Source: a virus. From it: 36,133 bases of DNA. Positions 194 through 30,213 of the stretch are shown in pieces. Within the stretch, counting starts at the first letter, position 1. Every line of letters begins with the position of its first letter. The stretch spans positions 1 to 36,133 of the IMG/VR virus record IMGVR_UViG_3300042914_001603; one strand, given 5' to 3'. Below the pieces are notes generated by a model. That model was not told where the DNA came from. It made no database searches and saw only the letters and a program-made list of their open reading frames with translations. The translations under genes were made by a program, and so were the position numbers.

Positions 194-531
194 TGTCTAT
201 ATTTACAGTATCAGCAGAAGTAGTGCAATTAGGAACTGGCGCTATTCAGCCGACAGACACATTTCAGAACGGTGTGCTTTTATCTGGTGATTTGAACAGG
301 GCTATTTCAACTGGTGGTGATGAGTACGCTAACGGTCTTCTAATGACAGACGCAGGACAGATTCGATACGTTGATGCGACTGCTGGGCTTCCTGTGGGTG
401 TGGTGTGGTCTAACGGACTTCCCAGAGCCAATGATGGCGCTTTGTGTGTCTCGACAGGCGCATTGGCGACATATTCAAACGGTACGCCTATGGTTGCGAA
501 TGGCGCGGTAAGAGTGAGCATAGTCCCATGA
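193..531 (+). CDS. Small probable virion-associated protein
   Basis: A 112-residue protein rich in Gly, Ala, Val and Thr, with no charged helices, signal peptide or membrane segment. It looks like a beta-rich particle protein rather than an enzyme. It is coupled to terL by a TAATG overlap and to the next gene by ATGA, so it belongs to the packaging/head operon. I do not recognise the family; decoration or head-completion roles are inferred from position only. Confidence 0.7.
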   Translation: MSIFTVSAEVVQLGTGAIQPTDTFQNGVLLSGDLNRAISTGGDEYANGLLMTDAGQIRYVDATAGLPVGVVWSNGLPRANDGALCVSTGALATYSNGTPMVANGAVRVSIVP

Positions 532-779
532 TATTTGTACAAGCGCACCCACAAGCCAGGCCGCCAGCCATTGATAAAATTGGCGCGGTTCAATATGTCA
601 TGTGGCACCCTGTTAAATGTGAAGACAAAACAGCATATTTTCTATTTCCCAATGGCGCAGAGTTAAAAACTAGCGCAACACCCGAAAGACTGGTGGCCGT
701 TGCGGAAAGCCCAGAGGAGGCTTGGTCAAGAATTATGACCGACAAGCCGCTTCTTGAAAAATACGGAATACCCACATGA
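528..779 (+). CDS. Hypothetical small head-operon protein
   Basis: An 83-residue mixed-composition protein with no recognised motif. The frame stays open further upstream, but the ATG at 528 overlaps the previous stop as ATGA and the stop overlaps the portal start as ATGA, so the short form fits the operon best. It sits between terL and portal. Function unknown. Confidence 0.7.
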   Translation: MIFVQAHPQARPPAIDKIGAVQYVMWHPVKCEDKTAYFLFPNGAELKTSATPERLVAVAESPEEAWSRIMTDKPLLEKYGIPT

Positions 780-2977
780 ACCCAGTAGATGCAAGCACAA
801 AATGGCTGGCCGAGTTAAAACTTGCCAAACGTGAAGATGAAAAGTTTATTGAGCGTGGCGACAGGATAATACGGCGTTATCGTGACGACCGCAAAAACTT
901 CACGACTTATGGTAAGAGGTTTAATATACTCTGGTCAAACGTTGAGACCCTGAAACCCGCCCTATACGGGAAAACCCCTAGAGCCGAAGTATCGAGACGC
1001 TGGAAGGATTCTGACCCTGTTGGTCGCACTGCTTCGGTGATTATAGAACGTTGTTTACAGTACGAGATTGACAAGGGCGACTTTGACGCCTCGATGAAGC
1101 TGGCGATAATTGACAGACTACTGCCCGGACGCGGCACGGTGTGGGTGCGGTTCGAGGAAAAAGAACTAGCCCAGCCTGTTGACGCTTTGCCCGGTGAAGA
1201 GGGCGGCGAGGCGCAAGTTATGCCCAACGCGCCGTATAAATACGAATGCACCCCAGTAGATTATGTCTTCTGGAAAGATGTGAGATATTCACCCGCTAGA
1301 TGTTGGGATGAGGTGACATGGATTGCCCGTAGGGTGTACATGAGCCAAGAGGATGGCATTAAGCGATTTGGCGAGGATTTTAAGCAAGTTCCATTAACTC
1401 ACGAACCTGTTGGCCTAGATGAAATGGAAAAAATGGGTGTTGAAGGCCTGGACGACATGAAAAAAGCCGTTGTCTGGGAAATATGGAGCAAGACGACAAA
1501 GCAGGTTTTCTGGGTGTCTGAGGGATACTCTAAGACGCTGGACATTAAAGACGACCCACTCGGTTTAGATAGTTTCTGGCCGTGCCCCAAGCCTTTGTTT
1601 GCTACTCAAACCACCGAGACTTTAGTACCCATACCCGATTACAGCCTTTATCAAGACCAAGCCGAAGAGATTGACATGCTAACCAACCGGATAGCAAAGT
1701 TAGTCGAAGCGGTTAAAGTCGTGGGTGTCTATGACGCAAGCCAGCAAAGCGTACAGAGGATGTTAAGCGAGGGCGTGGATAACCAGTTGATATCTGTTGA
1801 CACTTGGGCAGCTTTTGCGGAAAAAGGCGGTCTAAAGGGTGTGGTTGACTTCATGCCGCTGGATTCTGTACTCCAAGCATTACGTGAATGCTACGCGGCT
1901 AGAGAGCAGGCGAAACAGGTAGTGTATGAGATTACCGGAATATCTGACATTATTCGCGGTTCAACGATAGCTTCGGAAACCGCAGCCGCGCAACAGATAA
2001 AAAGCCAATATGCTTCATTGAGAATAAAACCAAGACAAACAGAAGTGGCTCAGTTTGCTTCGGAAGTGCTGAGAATAAAAGCCCAGATAATGTGCGATTT
2101 TTACGCGCCCCAGACCCTTGTCGAGATGTCTGGAATCATGGGGACAATGGATGCTCAATATGCTGAGCAGGCCATTATGCTGCTCAAGTCTGAGCCAGCC
2201 AGAGGGTTCAGGATTGAGGTTGCCTCTGATTCACTGGTAGAGATGGACGAGGCCACCGAAAAACAGAGCCGGATTGAGTTTCTTGGCGCGGTCGGTCAGT
2301 TCATGGACAGAGCTTTGCCCGTAACTCAACAAGTGCCAGAACTCGCTCCTTTGATGGGTGAAATGCTGATGTTTGGTGTTCGCGCATTCAAGGGCGGCAG
2401 AATGATGGAATCTGCTTTTGATGAAGCCTTGGCAAAACTTAACGCACCAAAACCGCCTGAACAACCTCAACCGGATCCGGAGCAGATGAAAGCCGAGGCT
2501 ATGATGCAGGTTGAACAGGGCAAGATGCAGCTAGAACAGGCAAAAATACAAACTCAAGGACAGATTGAGCAATTTAAGGCGCAGCAGGCTAAAGATCTGG
2601 AACAGATGCGGCAAGAATACGAATCGGCTAGAGAACAAGTCAGACAAGAAGCCGAGACGCAACGCTTGCAAATGAAAGCCCAGATTGAGGCAGAAACAAA
2701 GCTGCAAGTTGCCAAAATTCAAAAAGGCGCTAAAGAAGAAGAAACTGACGAGCCAGAAATCAATTTGTTAGAAAACATCAGAGACATGATGAGCCAGATG
2801 GCCGAGACTTTGGGGAATACTATAAGCATGACGCGGGATGAAATTATACAAATGAGCAATACCCCAAAAAAAACGCGCATAATACGTGACAACAATGGAA
2901 AAGTACAAGAAGTTGAAATAAATGGAATCGTTCGACCAGTAATTCGTGACCAATTTGGAAACATTGAAAGTATTTGA
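776..2977 (+). CDS. Portal protein
   Basis: A 733-residue protein directly after terminase, where the portal is expected. The portal forms the ring at one capsid vertex through which DNA enters and leaves. The N-terminal 550 residues have the mixed helix/strand character of large podoviral portals, including the segment YGKRFNILWSNVETLKPAL near residue 45. Residues of about 560-660 are a long Gln/Glu/Lys/Met-rich coiled coil beginning with a PPEQPQPDPEQ stretch, matching the barrel or extended C-terminal helix of podoviral portals. The last 45 residues are a separate charged segment. Assigned from size, position and composition. Confidence 0.85.
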   Translation: MNPVDASTKWLAELKLAKREDEKFIERGDRIIRRYRDDRKNFTTYGKRFNILWSNVETLKPALYGKTPRAEVSRRWKDSDPVGRTASVIIERCLQYEIDKGDFDASMKLAIIDRLLPGRGTVWVRFEEKELAQPVDALPGEEGGEAQVMPNAPYKYECTPVDYVFWKDVRYSPARCWDEVTWIARRVYMSQEDGIKRFGEDFKQVPLTHEPVGLDEMEKMGVEGLDDMKKAVVWEIWSKTTKQVFWVSEGYSKTLDIKDDPLGLDSFWPCPKPLFATQTTETLVPIPDYSLYQDQAEEIDMLTNRIAKLVEAVKVVGVYDASQQSVQRMLSEGVDNQLISVDTWAAFAEKGGLKGVVDFMPLDSVLQALRECYAAREQAKQVVYEITGISDIIRGSTIASETAAAQQIKSQYASLRIKPRQTEVAQFASEVLRIKAQIMCDFYAPQTLVEMSGIMGTMDAQYAEQAIMLLKSEPARGFRIEVASDSLVEMDEATEKQSRIEFLGAVGQFMDRALPVTQQVPELAPLMGEMLMFGVRAFKGGRMMESAFDEALAKLNAPKPPEQPQPDPEQMKAEAMMQVEQGKMQLEQAKIQTQGQIEQFKAQQAKDLEQMRQEYESAREQVRQEAETQRLQMKAQIEAETKLQVAKIQKGAKEEETDEPEINLLENIRDMMSQMAETLGNTISMTRDEIIQMSNTPKKTRIIRDNNGKVQEVEINGIVRPVIRDQFGNIESI

Positions 2978-2988
2978 AAGGGCTAAAA

Positions 2989-3393
2989 ATGGCAACATTT
3001 AATAAATTTAACGCATGGGCTGAAAACATGGTAGAAGTGGCTAATCTAGGCACTGACCAGTTCACTATTGCTTTGACAAACACCGCGCCCGTAGCGGCAA
3101 ACAGCGTACTTGCTGACATTACGCAAATAAGCTACACAAACCTGTCTAGCCGAAATGTTACAACGACAAGTTCCTCGCAGACAGGCGGCACTTACACACT
3201 GGTGCTACAGGATTTGGTGTTGACGGCTTCTGGTTCTGTTGGGCCTTTTCGTTATGTGGTGTTGTTTGATGACACGCCAACTTCACCCGCCGACCCGTTG
3301 GCTGGTTGGTGGGATTATGGCTCAAGCATTACGATGGCGAACGGTGAAACGTTTACTGTTGACTTTACTGGCGCTGCAATTACTGTTTCGTAG
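2989..3393 (+). CDS. Conserved podoviral structural protein
   Basis: A 134-residue beta-rich protein beginning MATFNKFNAWAENMVEVANL and carrying the segment VALTNTAPVA-like IALTNTAPVAANS. Proteins with this type of N-terminus are widespread in phage structural regions, without a settled role. A TTG at 2974 is in frame, but the ATG at 2989 is preceded by GAAAGG at the right distance and is preferred. It opens a five-gene block of probable displayed proteins between portal and scaffold. Confidence 0.75.
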   Translation: MATFNKFNAWAENMVEVANLGTDQFTIALTNTAPVAANSVLADITQISYTNLSSRNVTTTSSSQTGGTYTLVLQDLVLTASGSVGPFRYVVLFDDTPTSPADPLAGWWDYGSSITMANGETFTVDFTGAAITVS

Positions 3394-9405: not shown

Positions 9406-10110
9406 ATGAATTACACCCTGTTGGAGCTAGTGCAGCAGGTTACTGGTGAACTGGGTGTAAGCCGCCCGACATTGGTTATCGGGAACAATGACCCGCAGAT
9501 CATACAACTACTCGCCTTGGTCAACCGACTAGGGCGAGACCTTTCCCGCCAGTACGAGTGGCAAAGGCTGAATACTGAACACAGTTTTACTACGGTTCAG
9601 GGGCAAACACAATACGCCCTACCGAGTGACTGGGGCAGACAAATACCCCAGACCGAATGGGATAGAACGTCACAATGGCCGCTCATAGGGCCTGCAACCA
9701 CTCAAGAATGGCAGATTTATAAATCAGCGATTATCAGCGATGGCCCAAACCTTCGCTTCAGAATTGCTAACAACTTCCTAGAGGTTGACCCGCCCACGGG
9801 TGGATTGAACCTGTCTTTTTACTACATTTCAAAAAACTGGATTGATGCAGGTGGCGGGGTTACTCGCAAAACCTACGCAGACGACACTGACCGAGCGATA
9901 TTTGACGATTCGCTGATGGTTTTAGGTCTAAAAGTACAGTGGAAAGCCTCTAAAGGACTTGACCCTGGCTTAGACTTGCCGGAATTTAGAAACATGCTCG
10001 ACACGATTAAAGCACAGGACAAGTCGGCACCAAAACTTACACTCGGCGGTTTGCCACGTAATATATTGCTGACTGAGTGGAACATACAAGACGGCAATTT
10101 TCCCGGTTAA
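9406..10110 (+). CDS. Head-tail adaptor (tail tube A-like)
   Basis: A 234-residue protein of the class that follows the capsid in podoviruses and joins portal to tail. The N-terminal helical bundle (LLELVQQVTGELGV, then LLALVNRLGRDLSRQYEWQR) is followed by a strand segment YALPSDWGRQIPQTEWDR and the typical FYYISKNWI. This matches adaptor proteins of the gp11-like type. It lies directly before the nozzle gene, as expected. Confidence 0.8.
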   Translation: MNYTLLELVQQVTGELGVSRPTLVIGNNDPQIIQLLALVNRLGRDLSRQYEWQRLNTEHSFTTVQGQTQYALPSDWGRQIPQTEWDRTSQWPLIGPATTQEWQIYKSAIISDGPNLRFRIANNFLEVDPPTGGLNLSFYYISKNWIDAGGGVTRKTYADDTDRAIFDDSLMVLGLKVQWKASKGLDPGLDLPEFRNMLDTIKAQDKSAPKLTLGGLPRNILLTEWNIQDGNFPG

Positions 10111-21207: not shown

Positions 21208-21491
21208 CTAGCACAATTAGACAGCTTACATACGGCGAATGCAGTGACGGTGAACTGTATATACAGGAAGTAGATAACCCCGACATTCAGGTGGCCTATG
21301 TATTGCATTACGGCGATTTTAATAAAACATTGGCGCTTGCTCAATTATTTGCCGCCGCGCCTGATTTGCTTGGAGCGCTAGAAGAATTGTTAGCCATGTG
21401 CCAACGTCAAGAAAACTTTAACGACGACGGCGACGGTTGCATGTTTGAGCGCGCCAGTGCCGCTATTGCAAAAGCAAGGGGTGAGAAATGA
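21204..21491 (+). CDS. Hypothetical phage accessory protein
   Basis: A 95-residue protein. The middle AAAPDLLGALEELLAMCQRQ and the AIAKARGEK end match a common small phage protein of unknown role, usually found with others of the same operon. It overlaps both neighbours by ATGA and carries the same RGEK-coded ribosome site. Confidence 0.65.
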   Translation: MTSTIRQLTYGECSDGELYIQEVDNPDIQVAYVLHYGDFNKTLALAQLFAAAPDLLGALEELLAMCQRQENFNDDGDGCMFERASAAIAKARGEK

Positions 21492-22264
21492 CTGACCGAG
21501 CATACGACACCCAAAAAAAGCGCATTGTGTGCTGGTTTTCATGCGGTGCAGCAAGCGCCGTCGCAACCAAACTGGTGCTGAGTCAGTTTGCAAATCAGGA
21601 AGTTGTCATAGCACGTTGCATAGTGCGCGAAGAACACCCGGACAATGACCGCTTTGCGGCTGACTGCGAACGCTGGTTTGGCCAGCACATCGTCAACCTT
21701 ATCGCTAAGGAGTATGACGGCTCAGTGTTCAACGTCATTGGCAAGCGCAAATACATCAGTGGAGTTGATGGCGCACCTTGCACCATGTTGCTAAAAAAAG
21801 AAGTGCGCTTGGCATTTCAGCGGCCAACAGACCGTCACGTTTTTGGTTACTGCTCAGAAGAACAAGAACGCTATAACATGTTTTTGGACGCCAACAATAT
21901 TGATTGCATCGTTCCGCTGATTGATCGTGGTTTAAGTCACGCCGATTGTTTATCTATGCTACAAACCGCAGGGATAAAACTCCCCGAAATGTACCGTCTA
22001 GGGTACAAGCATAACAACTGCATAGGATGCGTTAAAGCATCTGGTGCTGGTTACTGGAACAAGATCAGGCAGGACTTTCCTGAGCGTTTCTGGATGATGG
22101 CTGGAGCATCTAGGGCGCTTGGTGTAAAGATGACTCGCAGCGAATCTACGCGCATTTATCTTGATGAGCTTCCTGTCGGCATCGGACGCTATCAAGATGA
22201 ACCAGAAATTCAGTGCGGAATTTTCTGCGAAATGGCAAACAACGAAATTAAAGAGAACACATGA
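21488..22264 (+). CDS. PAPS-reductase-like PP-loop ATPase-family protein
   Basis: A 258-residue protein of the PP-loop ATP pyrophosphatase superfamily. The loop is FSCGAAS at residues 17-23 (consensus SGGxxS). Further signatures are GAPCTMLLKKEVR (95-107) and the Cys pair HNNCIGC (C178, C181), followed by GAGYWNKIRQDFPE. Members activate or reduce sulfur-containing substrates or modify nucleic acids. No sulfur-pathway partner or DNA-modification cluster is nearby, so the substrate is unknown. A role in nucleic acid modification or defence evasion is a reasonable hypothesis. Confidence 0.8.
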   Translation: MTDRAYDTQKKRIVCWFSCGAASAVATKLVLSQFANQEVVIARCIVREEHPDNDRFAADCERWFGQHIVNLIAKEYDGSVFNVIGKRKYISGVDGAPCTMLLKKEVRLAFQRPTDRHVFGYCSEEQERYNMFLDANNIDCIVPLIDRGLSHADCLSMLQTAGIKLPEMYRLGYKHNNCIGCVKASGAGYWNKIRQDFPERFWMMAGASRALGVKMTRSESTRIYLDELPVGIGRYQDEPEIQCGIFCEMANNEIKENT

Positions 22265-27702: not shown

Positions 27703-27909
27703 ATGGCTTGGTTAGATATTGTGGCGATTTGTTTTGCGCTGTTTTCACTTTGTTTATCAATAAGGAATTCATGGGTTTTTAACCGAAGGAATGAATTAAA
27801 TCGTTTTGAAAACGGAATTCACGTTATTGAAAACTATGCGGATTACGGCACTATGATTCTCAAGTTCTGGATATGGGACGTTGAAAAGTTCAAGTTGCCT
27901 AACGCTTGA
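27703..27909 (+). CDS. Small membrane protein
   Basis: A 68-residue protein with an N-terminal membrane helix (DIVAICFALFSLCLSI) followed by a charged soluble tail. The stop lies inside the first attC-like site. It is the last gene before the cassette array. No family recognised. Confidence 0.65.
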   Translation: MAWLDIVAICFALFSLCLSIRNSWVFNRRNELNRFENGIHVIENYADYGTMILKFWIWDVEKFKLPNA

Positions 27910-27966
27910 AATAACAGGCTTGGCGCGGCTTTATGCGCCAAGTCCTTGTTGATTGATGGGTTAGCC
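27897..27966 (-). other. attC-like site 0
   Basis: On the - strand this reads R box GGCTAAC, spacer CCATC, L box arm with three extra bases, a hairpin stem (CTTGGCGC and GCGCCAAG) with an 8-base loop, the other arm, spacer TCAAGC, and the perfect core GTTAGGC. Its stem is unlike the other five sites, so it has a separate origin. Confidence 0.8.
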
Positions 27967-28006
27967 GTGCGCCCTTTAGATACGGCACAACAGCGAAGGA
28001 AACAAA

Positions 28007-28243
28007 ATGGACTTTGGCACAGCACTGAAAGAACTGAAAAGCGGCAACAAGGTAGCCCGTAGCGGCTGGAATGGTGTTAGTCTTTGGCTGGAACTGCAAA
28101 CGCCTGACGCAAACAGCAAGATGACGCTGCCGTACATCTACATCAACTACCCGCAGGACGCAAAGACGACCCCCGGCGCAAAAGTGCCGTGGCTGGCTTC
28201 GCAGACTGACATGCTGGCCGAGGACTGGATCATTACGGCCTAG
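28007..28243 (+). CDS. DUF2829 protein, candidate Tad2-like Thoeris inhibitor
   Basis: A 78-residue protein. Residues 16-23 are VARSGWNG, 41-46 LPYIYI and 61-74 PWLASQTDMLAEDW, the core signature of DUF2829. Members of this family include Tad2 proteins, which bind and sequester the signalling nucleotide of Thoeris defence. The sequence is a full single domain. It is carried in a cassette with exactly matching attC ends. The anti-defence role is inferred from the family and context. GAAGGA is upstream. Confidence 0.8.
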   Translation: MDFGTALKELKSGNKVARSGWNGVSLWLELQTPDANSKMTLPYIYINYPQDAKTTPGAKVPWLASQTDMLAEDWIITA

Positions 28244-28278
28244 TGAACAGGAGGCCGTCATCGGTTCAGGCTGGTGAC

Positions 28279-28332
28279 GGCTAACGGCAAAGTTCATCGG
28301 TGCGAAGCATCCGCTGGAACGATGGGTTAGGT
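28279..28332 (-). other. attC-like site 1
   Basis: The - strand reads R box ACCTAAC, spacer CCATC, arm GTTCCAGCGGATGC, loop TTC, arm GCACCGCTGAAC, spacer TTTGCC, core GTTAGCC. The first arm has two extra bases (a C and an A). This is the same 5-nt/6-nt spacer and extra-base layout as the attC of aadA. Confidence 0.85.
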
Positions 28333-28347
28333 GAAAAGGAAAAAATT

Positions 28348-28434
28348 ATGAAAATTACTGTTGCAGGCTTTGTTTGGATTTTATTTGTTTTTGTTTGCGT
28401 TCTTGGTTTTTTGTTGGATTATTACAAAGTTTAG
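28348..28434 (+). CDS. 28-residue membrane peptide, copy 1
   Basis: A small hydrophobic frame, MKITVAGFVWIL then FVFVCVLGFLLDYYKV. It starts 16 bases after the attC core with an AAAAGGAAAAA site. A second copy at 28710 is homologous in both protein and upstream DNA. Conservation of both copies suggests that it is translated. Possibly a membrane-active peptide. Confidence 0.6.
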   Translation: MKITVAGFVWILFVFVCVLGFLLDYYKV

Positions 28435-28442
28435 GATTAATC

Positions 28443-28610
28443 ATGAATTGGCCTACATATAGTGAAATGAAAGAAAAAGGTGGTATTTGGTCGTGCCCGA
28501 AATGTGAGGGTACTGACAAATGGTGCATTCTTGAAATGGATGACGAACGTGGTGCTGTATGCGAAAGACACGGCGTAATAGTGCCTAACGTAGAAAATAA
28601 AGGAGAGTAA
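28443..28610 (+). CDS. Small zinc-ribbon-like protein
   Basis: A 55-residue protein with CPKC (residues 18-21) and further Cys at 28 and 41, suggesting metal binding. It ends in NKGE, so it carries the AAAGGAGAG ribosome site, but only a five-codon frame follows, as if its former partner gene was cut away by the next cassette. Confidence 0.6.
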   Translation: MNWPTYSEMKEKGGIWSCPKCEGTDKWCILEMDDERGAVCERHGVIVPNVENKGE

Positions 28611-28639
28611 CGATGAAACCCGACTAATCATGGGGTCTA

Positions 28640-28696
28640 TCTTAACGCCCAGTCCAGCGGTGAGCGTAGCGAATCCGCTGGAACGTAGTGTTAGGT
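28640..28696 (-). other. attC-like site 2
   Basis: On the - strand: ACCTAAC, CACTAC spacer region, arm GTTCCAGCGGATTCGC, loop TAC, arm GCTCACCGCTGGAC and core GTTAAGA. The tip has a tandem GA mismatch. It is of the second subtype, shared with site 5. The core is a weaker match to the consensus. Confidence 0.75.
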
Positions 28697-28709
28697 GAAA
28701 GGAAAAATG

Positions 28710-28796
28710 ATGAAAATTTCTGCTGAAGGCGTTGCTTGGATTTTACTTGTTCTTGTTTGCGTTATTGGGTTACTTTTGGATTATTACAAAGCTTAA
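28710..28796 (+). CDS. 28-residue membrane peptide, copy 2
   Basis: MKISAEGVAWIL then LVLVCVIGLLLDYYKA. Same length and the same end as the copy at 28348, with substitutions spread over the middle. A second ATG three bases upstream (28707) is also possible. It precedes a membrane protein gene in its cassette. Confidence 0.6.
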   Translation: MKISAEGVAWILLVLVCVIGLLLDYYKA

Positions 28797-28812
28797 AGTT
28801 ATTGAAGGAAAA

Positions 28813-29040
28813 ATGATGAAAAGCTGGAACAGCGACTTCGACAAGCGATTCAATCGCATGCAACGTTTTGTGACGTGGTTTATTGGCGGCGTGCTCGTGC
28901 TAATCCTGTGCATCTGGGTCGGCGGCGCGGTGTTGGCATACAAGGCCGTGACCGTCGCAGGCGAACAAGATTGGAGCGGCGGCATCAAGCCGGTAATTGA
29001 ACGGCTGTGGTGCGGCAAGCCCGGGTGCTTTGGCGACTAA
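28813..29040 (+). CDS. Small membrane protein
   Basis: A 75-residue protein with a charged start (MMKSWNSDFDKRFNRMQRF) and one membrane helix at about 20-43 (FIGGVLVLILCIWVGGAVLA), followed by a soluble tail with two Cys. Its stop lies in the R box of site 3, a usual relation of cassette gene to attC. Function unknown. Confidence 0.65.
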   Translation: MMKSWNSDFDKRFNRMQRFVTWFIGGVLVLILCIWVGGAVLAYKAVTVAGEQDWSGGIKPVIERLWCGKPGCFGD

Positions 29041-29082
29041 CGGCGAAGTTCAGCGGTGCGAAGCATCCGCTGGAGCTTAGTA
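29035..29082 (-). other. attC-like site 3, degenerate
   Basis: The hairpin, spacer (TTCGCC) and core (GTTAGTC) are kept, but the outer R box side is shortened and reads CTTAGTA on +. Probably the least active of the six. Confidence 0.65.
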
Positions 29083-29100
29083 AAGAAACGAGGAGACCTA

Positions 29101-29876
29101 TGAATGCAAAACCTTTAGGCATTAAGAACTACGGAAGCATCGCGCACCTTCCAGGTTCGCGTATGGGGTCAGGCGACCACAGTTGCAACGAAGGACAAAA
29201 GCGCATATGCAACGAGAAGGCGCGAGACAAGCACGACCGCATTATCGTGCAAGAAAAACTTGACGGATCGAACGTAGGTATTTGCAAGGTTAGAGGGCAG
29301 ATTCTGCCGCTGACGCGTGCTGGCTACAACGCAAACACCTCGCCATATGAACAACACCATAAGTTCGCATACTGGGTAACGCAGAATTATGCGCGATTTG
29401 ACGCTATGCTGCATGAGGGCGAGCGGTGCGTAGGAGAGTGGTTGCTACAGGCGCACGGCACTCGCTACGAACTGCCGCATGAACCGTTCGTTCTGTTCGA
29501 CATCATGCGCGGCACTGAGCGGGCGCTGTTCGAGGAAGTGCAATCAAGAGCGCGCGATTTTGTGCTGCCGAAAGTTGTGCGAATCGGCGAGCCGATGAGT
29601 ATTGCTGAAGCGATGGAGTCTCTCGGCGAATACGGCGGTCATGGGGCACTTGATCCCATCGAGGGGGCGGTGTGGCGCGTGGAGCGCAACGAAATCAGCA
29701 AAAAGAGTACAGGAGTCCGCACTTGGCGCGTTGACTTCCTTGCGAAGTACGTTCGACCTGACAAAGCGGATGGTTGCTACCTCGAAAGCGTGACCGGGAA
29801 ACCTACGGTGTGGAACAGCATAAAGCATAACGGCGAAGTTCAGCGGGGCGAAGCATCCGCTGGAACGATGGGTTAG
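29101..29876 (+). CDS. RNA-ligase-family nucleotidyltransferase
   Basis: A 258-residue protein of the ligase/capping superfamily. K53 lies in EKLDGSN, the covalent nucleotidylation motif. Further motifs are CVGEW (110-114), FVLFDIM (130-136), EGAVWRV (188-194) and FLAKYV (K216). RNA ligases of this class repair cut RNAs, such as tRNAs cleaved by defence nucleases. The last 17 residues are encoded within attC site 4 and look like an extension acquired with it. The start at 29101 has GAGGAG upstream. Confidence 0.8.
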
Positions 29877-29878
29877 AA
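29825..29878 (-). other. attC-like site 4
   Basis: The - strand reads TTCTAAC, CCATC, GTTCCAGCGGATGC, TTC, GCCCCGCTGAAC, TTCGCC, GTTATGC. It is almost identical in arms and spacers to site 1. Its R box TTCTAAC exactly pairs with the core of site 5 (GTTAGAA), which is the mark of an integron cassette between them. Confidence 0.85.
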
Positions 29879-29889
29879 AAGGAATTTTT

Positions 29890-30153
29890 ATGAAAGAAAA
29901 CCAATTGGCACATTATCAACATTTGACATGTCAGCAACAGCTAGGACGTATTGAGTTTGCACCTGAACCCTCCACGGTTTTTTGCTTTTGTCAGTGTGCA
30001 TTATTTCAAGCAAAGAAAATGCACCAAGATTCTCAAATGAATAACAAAGAAGAAATTTTTGATCGTGGAAAGAATAAAAATAATCCTCAAACAATGCGAG
30101 AAGCTCTTGAGGAGGCGTTTTATGGAAAAGAACGGCATAACGATGGTTCATAA
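29890..30153 (+). CDS. Cassette protein of unknown function
   Basis: An 87-residue protein with three Cys in a CFCQC block and a C-terminal helix (TMREALEEAFYGKE). It has AAGGAA upstream. A minus-strand frame of the same length exists here and would match the normal cassette direction, but it has no ribosome site. The plus-strand gene is preferred with moderate confidence. Confidence 0.55.
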   Translation: MKENQLAHYQHLTCQQQLGRIEFAPEPSTVFCFCQCALFQAKKMHQDSQMNNKEEIFDRGKNKNNPQTMREALEEAFYGKERHNDGS

Positions 30154-30155
30154 AG

Positions 30156-30213
30156 TTCTAACGGATAAGTTCAGCGGTGAGCGTAGCGAATCCGCAGGAA
30201 CGTAGTGTTATGT
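30156..30213 (-). other. attC-like site 5
   Basis: The - strand reads ACATAAC, CACTAC region, GTTCCTGCGGATTCGC, TAC, GCTCACCGCTGAAC, TTATCC, GTTAGAA. Same subtype as site 2 (tandem GA mismatch near the tip). It is the last site toward higher coordinates. Confidence 0.8.

What the first reader, a model, noticed from the sequence alone, without database searches (positions are those of the whole stretch)
28007..28243. Tad2-like (DUF2829) anti-defence candidate as a mobile cassette
The protein has all visible DUF2829 motifs in 78 residues. Tad2 of this family blocks Thoeris by binding its nucleotide signal. Its cassette has the best-matched ends in the array (9 bases), so it looks recently mobile. 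A phage that collects anti-defence genes through integron cassettes would be new to my knowledge.
Basis: partly seen in the sequence, partly recalled or inferred. Interest (0 to 1): 0.8.

Follow-up and report, generated by a model that had tools for sequence, protein, structure and literature searches.

The report
Mobile anti-defence gene cassette in phages
A small phage gene that probably disarms a bacterial immune system sits in a cut-and-paste DNA cassette of the kind bacteria use in integrons, and the identical cassette has hopped cleanly into an unrelated phage, which suggests that phages share counter-defence genes through this route.

Summary
ORF 28007-28243 is a Tad2-family protein (Pfam Tad2-like 80.6 bits; predicted fold closest to SPO1 Tad2). 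It lies in a genuine integron-type cassette, 27903-28284, in a six-site array with no integrase in the 36-kb phage record. Mobility is shown by comparison: an otherwise unrelated phage contig (L009) carries the same cassette at 100% identity, and seven sister contigs hold the exact empty site, so 382 bp went in precisely at AAC/GTT, the integron crossover triplet. 139 related attC sites in 49 viral contigs show that cassettes match their own ends (P<1/20000) and that homology breaks at the cut (36 observed, 3.9 expected). Sister cassettes carry Acb2/Tad1, Mom, DNA methyltransferases and RNA ligases. Integron components in phages, including methyltransferase cassettes, are already published (PMC9892861). 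New here are the inverted cassette family, sponge-protein cargo, and an empty/filled pair showing transfer. Thoeris inhibition and the recombinase (host IntI in trans is most likely) remain inferred.

The parts
28007..28243 (+). Tad2-like ORF (78 aa)
   Evidence: Pfam PF11195 80.6 bits; PDB sequence hits to SPO1 Tad2, SptTad2, AcrIIA7/HgmTad2; AlphaFold model pLDDT 91.3 matches SPO1 Tad2, TM 0.77-0.81
27903..28284 (-). Tad2 gene cassette, 382 bp between two crossover triplets AA^C (G^TT on the minus strand)
   Evidence: 100% identical block 27901-28285 in L009; seven empty sites in L177-L183
27897..27966 (-). attC site A, the Tad2 cassette's own attC, upstream of and antiparallel to the gene
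   Evidence: covariance model R1, 45.7 bits, E 7.5e-8; z -3.8 as single-stranded DNA
27964..27986 (+). leader hairpin GCCGTGC...GCACGGC-type between attC and ribosome-binding site
   Evidence: same leader in front of different genes; stems GCCGTGC/GCACGGC, GCCGGC/GCCGGC, GCCGCG/CGCGGC in other cassettes
28253..28285 (+). conserved tail hairpin GCCGTCA...TGGTGACGGC followed by TAAC
   Evidence: direct reading; the same tail follows other cassette genes
28279..28332 (-). attC site B
   Evidence: R1 62.8 bits, E 5.8e-12
28640..28696 (-). attC site C
   Evidence: R1 65.3 bits
29035..29082 (-). attC site D, degenerate right end
   Evidence: R1 32.2 bits, E 1.3e-4
29825..29878 (-). attC site E
   Evidence: R1 60.4 bits
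30156..30213 (-). attC site F
   Evidence: R1 70.3 bits, E 9e-14
28443..28610 (+). zinc-ribbon-like ORF in cassette B-C
   Evidence: ORF; homologue outside any cassette in L005
28816..29040 (+). DUF7248 ORF in cassette C-D
   Evidence: Pfam PF23906 53.6 bits
29100..29876 (+). RNA ligase ORF in cassette D-E
   Evidence: Pfam PF09414 68.5 bits; another RNA ligase in a cassette of L140
29890..30153 (+). 87-aa ORF of unknown function in cassette E-F
   Evidence: ORF; cassette shared with L007/L093 while the neighbouring cassette differs
27703..27909 (+). phage gene whose 3' end (codon AAC) is the insertion point of the array
   Evidence: window ends ...KLPNA*, relatives L095/L107 read on ...KLPNVENKG

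Best explanation
The Tad2-like gene is the cargo of an inverted integron gene cassette that moves between phages. Shown: the 382-bp unit carries a bona fide attC; it is bounded by the integron crossover triplet at both ends; it is present or absent precisely at that triplet in another phage lineage; and the record has no integrase. Inferred: during infection the attC on the phage's gene-sense strand (the canonical bottom strand) folds as single-stranded DNA and is recombined by an integron integrase supplied in trans, most likely by the host's integron, into secondary GTT sites or next to resident attC sites. Inferred from family: once expressed from the phage operon, with its own leader hairpin and ribosome-binding site, the protein sequesters a nucleotide immune signal (gcADPR of Thoeris, possibly related signals) and blocks abortive defence. 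Cassettes of the same family carry Acb2/Tad1, Mom, methyltransferases and RNA ligases, so the arrays act as an exchangeable counter-defence pool.
For: Family and fold. Cassette: model R1 built from 24 phage sites also finds class 1 integron attCs on the correct strand (L131, L136). Extrahelical bases C-N6-A, i.e. T-N6-G on the bottom strand (PMC3053210), appear on the correct arm only when phage sites are read antiparallel to the genes. Phage attC of L121 aligns to the antisense strand of a class 1 array (86.5%). Own-end matching over 83 cassettes, 0 of 20000 permutations. Breakpoints at AAC 36 vs 3.9 expected, at GTT 8, at shifted controls 0-4. Transfer: L009 block 100% over 385 bp with no flanking homology to the window; empty site in seven sisters with flanks mostly 91-99.9% identical. 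No tyrosine recombinase in the window record. A TIGR02249 integron integrase (474.8 bits) lies beside four such inverted cassettes in L141.
Against: No recombination or Thoeris assay. The source of integrase for this phage is unknown and its host is unidentified. No copy of the Tad2 cassette was found in a bacterial integron (genome-contig scan gave only six Firmicutes relatives at 40-46%). Site D is degenerate and homologous recombination between near-identical attC stems must also shape the arrays (some breakpoints lie inside stems). Records may be incomplete. Empty sites for L016 and L114 were not found.
Confidence: 0.72

Rival explanations
1. The cassettes are ordinary modular phage genes, and the attC-like repeats only serve as short homology for recombination between phages (no integron integrase involved).
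For: attC stems within the array are 80-97% alike; some breakpoints fall within stems rather than at the triplet, e.g. L007 against the window 6 bp inside site E.
Against: L009 carries a single cassette at a site with no attC and no homology beyond the AAC triplet, and the empty site exists in seven sisters. Own-end matching and breakpoint concentration at AAC are not predicted.
Confidence: 0.12
2. The integrase is phage-borne: some phages or prophages of this pool carry their own IntI and supply the cassettes.
For: L141: integron integrase over cut-off beside an array of four inverted cassettes inside a tail/retroelement gene cluster. Integron integrases in temperate phages are published (PMC9892861).
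Against: No tyrosine recombinase in the window record or in any of the 21 related records searched; only 4 of 24 had one, and 3 of those are not over the integron integrase cut-off. L141 may be a prophage remnant in a chromosome.
Confidence: 0.2
3. The protein is a Tad2-fold sponge whose main target is not Thoeris (for example a CBASS dinucleotide or another signal, or the Cas9 inhibition reported for AcrIIA7).
For: Tad2 homologues bind several cyclic dinucleotides, and AcrIIA7 shares the fold.
Against: Closest structures include SPO1 Tad2 bound to gcADPR. The 78-aa protein is shorter than the 101-104-aa SptTad2/HgmTad2 chains; a long beta2-beta5 insertion is linked to dinucleotide binding.
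Confidence: 0.25
4. A non-autonomous single-strand transposon (IS200/IS605-like HUH element) rather than an integron cassette.
For: Hairpins at both ends, no target duplication, insertion next to a short fixed motif.
Against: attC architecture with R and L boxes, T-N6-G bases, cross-hits to class 1 integron attCs, tandem arrays with own-end pairing, and an IntI beside a sister array.
Confidence: 0.03

Closest known systems
CALINs (attC clusters lacking an integrase) in virulent phages, Qi et al. 2023, PMC9892861
   Same: attC arrays without integrase in phage genomes; methyltransferase cassettes; five of six tested phage attCs recombined by IntI1; MW202573 of that study carries a site of the family described here.
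   Different: That paper searched 10,705 phage genomes and found 17 CALINs; its main text does not mention DUF2829. Here: consistently antiparallel genes, standard leader and tail, Tad2 and Acb2 cargo, and an empty/filled pair.
Tad2 (SPO1 gp34.65; SptTad2; HgmTad2/AcrIIA7; ModTad2)
   Same: Same Pfam domain, fold and GWNG / W..SQTD.LA.DW motifs.
   Different: 34-44% identity to the SPO1 chains in the fold search; shorter (78 aa); carried as a mobile cassette; activity untested.
Class 1 and environmental chromosomal integron gene cassettes
   Same: attC boxes, extrahelical base spacing, own-end pairing, G^TT crossover.
   Different: In textbook cassettes attC follows the gene on the same strand; here it precedes the gene on the opposite strand.
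Acb2/Tad1 sponge proteins
   Same: A cassette with the same leader in L114/L115 encodes this family (PF24729, 69.9 bits).
   Different: Different fold; not in the window.

Membership tests
Tad2 (PF11195) | Profile match over curated cut-off across the domain | tested here: met
   80.6 bits vs 25, residues 1-76
Tad2 (PF11195) | Tad2 fold | tested here: met
   pLDDT 91.3; top 24 PDB matches are all Tad2/AcrIIA7, TM 0.72-0.81
Tad2 (PF11195) | Homotetramer with gcADPR pockets | not testable with these tools
   Monomer modelled only; conserved residues present
Tad2 (PF11195) | Inhibits Thoeris | not testable with these tools
   Needs infection or binding assay
Integron gene cassette | attC with R/L boxes and extrahelical bases of the right polarity | tested here: met
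   (minus strand)
Integron gene cassette | Cassette's own ends pair (R'' with R') | tested here: met
   9 bases for Tad2; 47 of 83 family cassettes perfect
Integron gene cassette | Precise insertion at G^TT | tested here: met
   L009 filled vs L177-L183 empty
Integron gene cassette | attC downstream of and parallel to the gene (usual, not strictly defining) | tested here: not met
   Every Pfam-supported cassette gene examined in the phage arrays runs antiparallel to attC; hence called a variant
Integron gene cassette | Recombined by an integron integrase | not testable with these tools
   Needs an attC x attI assay
Complete integron | intI and attI in cis | tested here: not met
   No PF00589 match in the record; insertion in a coding gene, not an attI
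CALIN | At least two attC sites, no intI | tested here: met
   Six sites, no integrase

The most novel reading that the evidence does not exclude
Phages share a dedicated pool of standardised, inverted integron cassettes (attC, leader hairpin, ribosome-binding site, one small gene, tail hairpin) rich in counter-defence genes, and use host integron integrases in trans during infection to load them, so that the integron, known as a bacterial adaptation device, also works as a gene-capture device for lytic viruses.
Probability: 0.5. Interest if true: 0.9.

Novelty: new variant of a known kind. Interest (0 to 1): 0.82.

Why it matters
It would explain how small anti-defence genes such as Tad2, Acb2, Mom and methyltransferases jump singly between unrelated phages without a phage transposase, and it ties the integron to the phage-bacteria arms race. 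It also gives a practical handle: the cassette leader and attC signature can be used to find new counter-defence genes among the many unknown cassette ORFs, and the inverted orientation makes a strand-specific, testable prediction about recombination.

Tried and rejected
Parallel (gene-sense) attC orientation: rejected by extrahelical bases, alignment to class 1 arrays and breakpoints. The antisense 132-aa ORF as the true cassette gene: rejected, not conserved, and codon pattern favours Tad2. Bacterial source by genome scan: attC pattern gave 0 hits, Tad2 only distant Firmicutes. Rfam: nothing. Tetrasphaera phage TJE1: fetched, but its published attCs are not found by model R1, so it was no orientation control. 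Empty sites for L016 and L114: none. The search of phages with L125:1000-1900 used the wrong stretch of the locus, so its lack of hits means nothing. The other Tad2 relatives among the L011-L077 loci searched (apart from L016 and L018) have no attC of this family in the fetched DNA, so the gene itself is usually not a cassette. Enrichment of anti-defence genes over phage background was not tested statistically.

Full report
WHAT IS THERE. The window is a whole 36,133-bp IMG/VR virus record (classed linear, so possibly a fragment) with portal, major head, amidase, tail fibre and terminase genes and no tRNA or tyrosine recombinase. ORF 28007-28243 encodes 78 aa that match Pfam Tad2-like with 80.6 bits, solved Tad2 chains by sequence and, as an AlphaFold model of pLDDT 91.3, SPO1 Tad2 with and without gcADPR as best folds. 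Codon differences between cassette copies fall mainly on third positions and the antisense ORF is not conserved.

THE CASSETTE. Six hairpin sites lie at 27897-30213. A covariance model built from 24 such phage sites finds all six in the window and 163 matches in two searches; it also finds attCs of class 1 integrons on plasmids, on the strand of the bacterial array. Bacterial attCs carry two extrahelical bases, C-N6-A on the left arm (T-N6-G on the bottom strand; PMC3053210). The phage sites show the same bases on the right arm when read with the genes, so each attC is antiparallel to its gene. An independent check agrees: the gene-sense attC of phage contig L121 aligns to the antisense strand of a class 1 array in Citrobacter plasmid pTTHS031_GES, and to sites on sludge plasmids of Shewanella, Ideonella and Cupriavidus. 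The crossover G^TT is therefore the AAC left of each site, and the Tad2 cassette is 27903-28284 with site A as its attC.

MOBILITY. Contig L009 shares 27901-28285 with the window at 100% and nothing in the immediate flanks. Joining its flanks predicted an empty site; a scan found it in seven contigs, whose flanks align to L009 on both sides, mostly at 91-99.9%, and stop exactly at the shared AAC. So 382 bp entered precisely at the integron triplet, at a site that is not an attC. In the window the array entered a codon AAC near the end of ORF 27703-27909, which reads on in relatives L095 and L107. Over the family (139 sites, 49 contigs), 47 of 83 cassettes have perfectly matching own ends, 271 matches against 184 +/- 6 permuted. 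Homology breakpoints between related loci fall at AAC 36 times against 3.9 expected, at GTT 8 times, and 0-4 times at shifted controls. Breakpoints among related loci are not fully independent, so that P value (2e-23) is only indicative. The near-identical contig L006, from another metagenome, repeats the whole window array, which argues against misassembly.

CARGO. The leader GTTAGCCGTGCGCCC is followed by different genes in different phages. It forms a hairpin whose two arms change together in other cassettes. Recognised cargo: Tad2-like (window, L006, L009, L016, L018; a divergent one in L146, and one read by eye in L178), Acb2/Tad1 hairpin (L114, L115), C5 methyltransferase (L115), N6/N4 methyltransferase (L121 and L129, 94% identical), Dam (L141), Mom (L125), GIY-YIG (L125, under the curated cut-off), RNA ligase (window, L140) and crAss001_48 (L127). 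Most of the other ORFs have no family. Anti-defence roles of methyltransferases, Mom, Acb2, Tad2 and RNA ligase rest on published knowledge of the families, not on tests here.

MECHANISM. Shown: genuine attC, precise insertion, absence of integrase in the record. Inferred: integrase in trans. An integron integrase over its curated cut-off (474.8 vs 265 bits) stands beside four inverted cassettes in L141, in the classical divergent layout, where the array interrupts a phage tail/retroelement cluster. This shows that an IntI is associated with inverted cassettes of this family, but whether L141 is a free phage is unclear. Function of the protein as a signal sponge is inferred from family and fold (PMC12043709).

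WHAT IS KNOWN. Phage CALINs, integrons in temperate phages and IntI1-competent phage attCs were reported in 2023, with methyltransferase cassettes and the suggestion that cassettes help overcome host defence (PMC9892861). Searches for papers joining integron cassettes with Tad2, Acb2 or inverted phage cassettes found none in the held library; preprints and most subscription papers are not held. The finding is therefore a new variant: an inverted, standardised cassette family with sponge-protein cargo and a demonstrated empty/filled pair.

Noticed in passing
L115 1438-1850 and L114 (same cassette): Cassette with the window's leader encodes an Acb2/Tad1-hairpin protein (69.9 bits); the two contigs are 98.9% identical from the AAC triplet onward and differ to the left of it.
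   Followed up: partly
L141 5278-8177: Complete integron layout (IntI 474.8 bits, four inverted cassettes with a Dam methyltransferase) interrupting a tail/retroelement gene cluster.
   Followed up: partly
L121 4288-8250 and L129 (reverse strand) sites 425-3112: Long inverted arrays of 9 and 7 attC sites in phage contigs; they share an N6/N4 methyltransferase cassette at 94% identity.
   Followed up: partly
window 27964-27986 and other cassettes: Hairpin between attC and ribosome-binding site with compensatory changes between cassettes; role unknown (expression control, or part of the recombination site).
   Followed up: partly
cassette junctions, e.g. L121 6323-7027: Several cassette genes run a few codons into the next attC and use its TGA or TAA as stop codon (...PANA*, ...PNV*).
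   Followed up: no
window 28291-28433 and 28651-28795: Two neighbouring cassettes share an 82% identical start (attC plus a short hydrophobic peptide), suggesting cassette duplication.
   Followed up: no
L178 1430-1830: A sister of the L009 phage carries a different Tad2-like gene, again behind an attC-like site (24 bits) with its own leader and tail hairpins.
   Followed up: partly
window 21488-22264: Phosphoadenosine phosphosulfate reductase-like gene, a common auxiliary phage gene.
   Followed up: no
L125, cassette after the attC at 9758-9833 (reverse strand): Cassette ORF with a match to the Mom DNA-modification family (42.6 bits), shorter than the family model.
   Followed up: no
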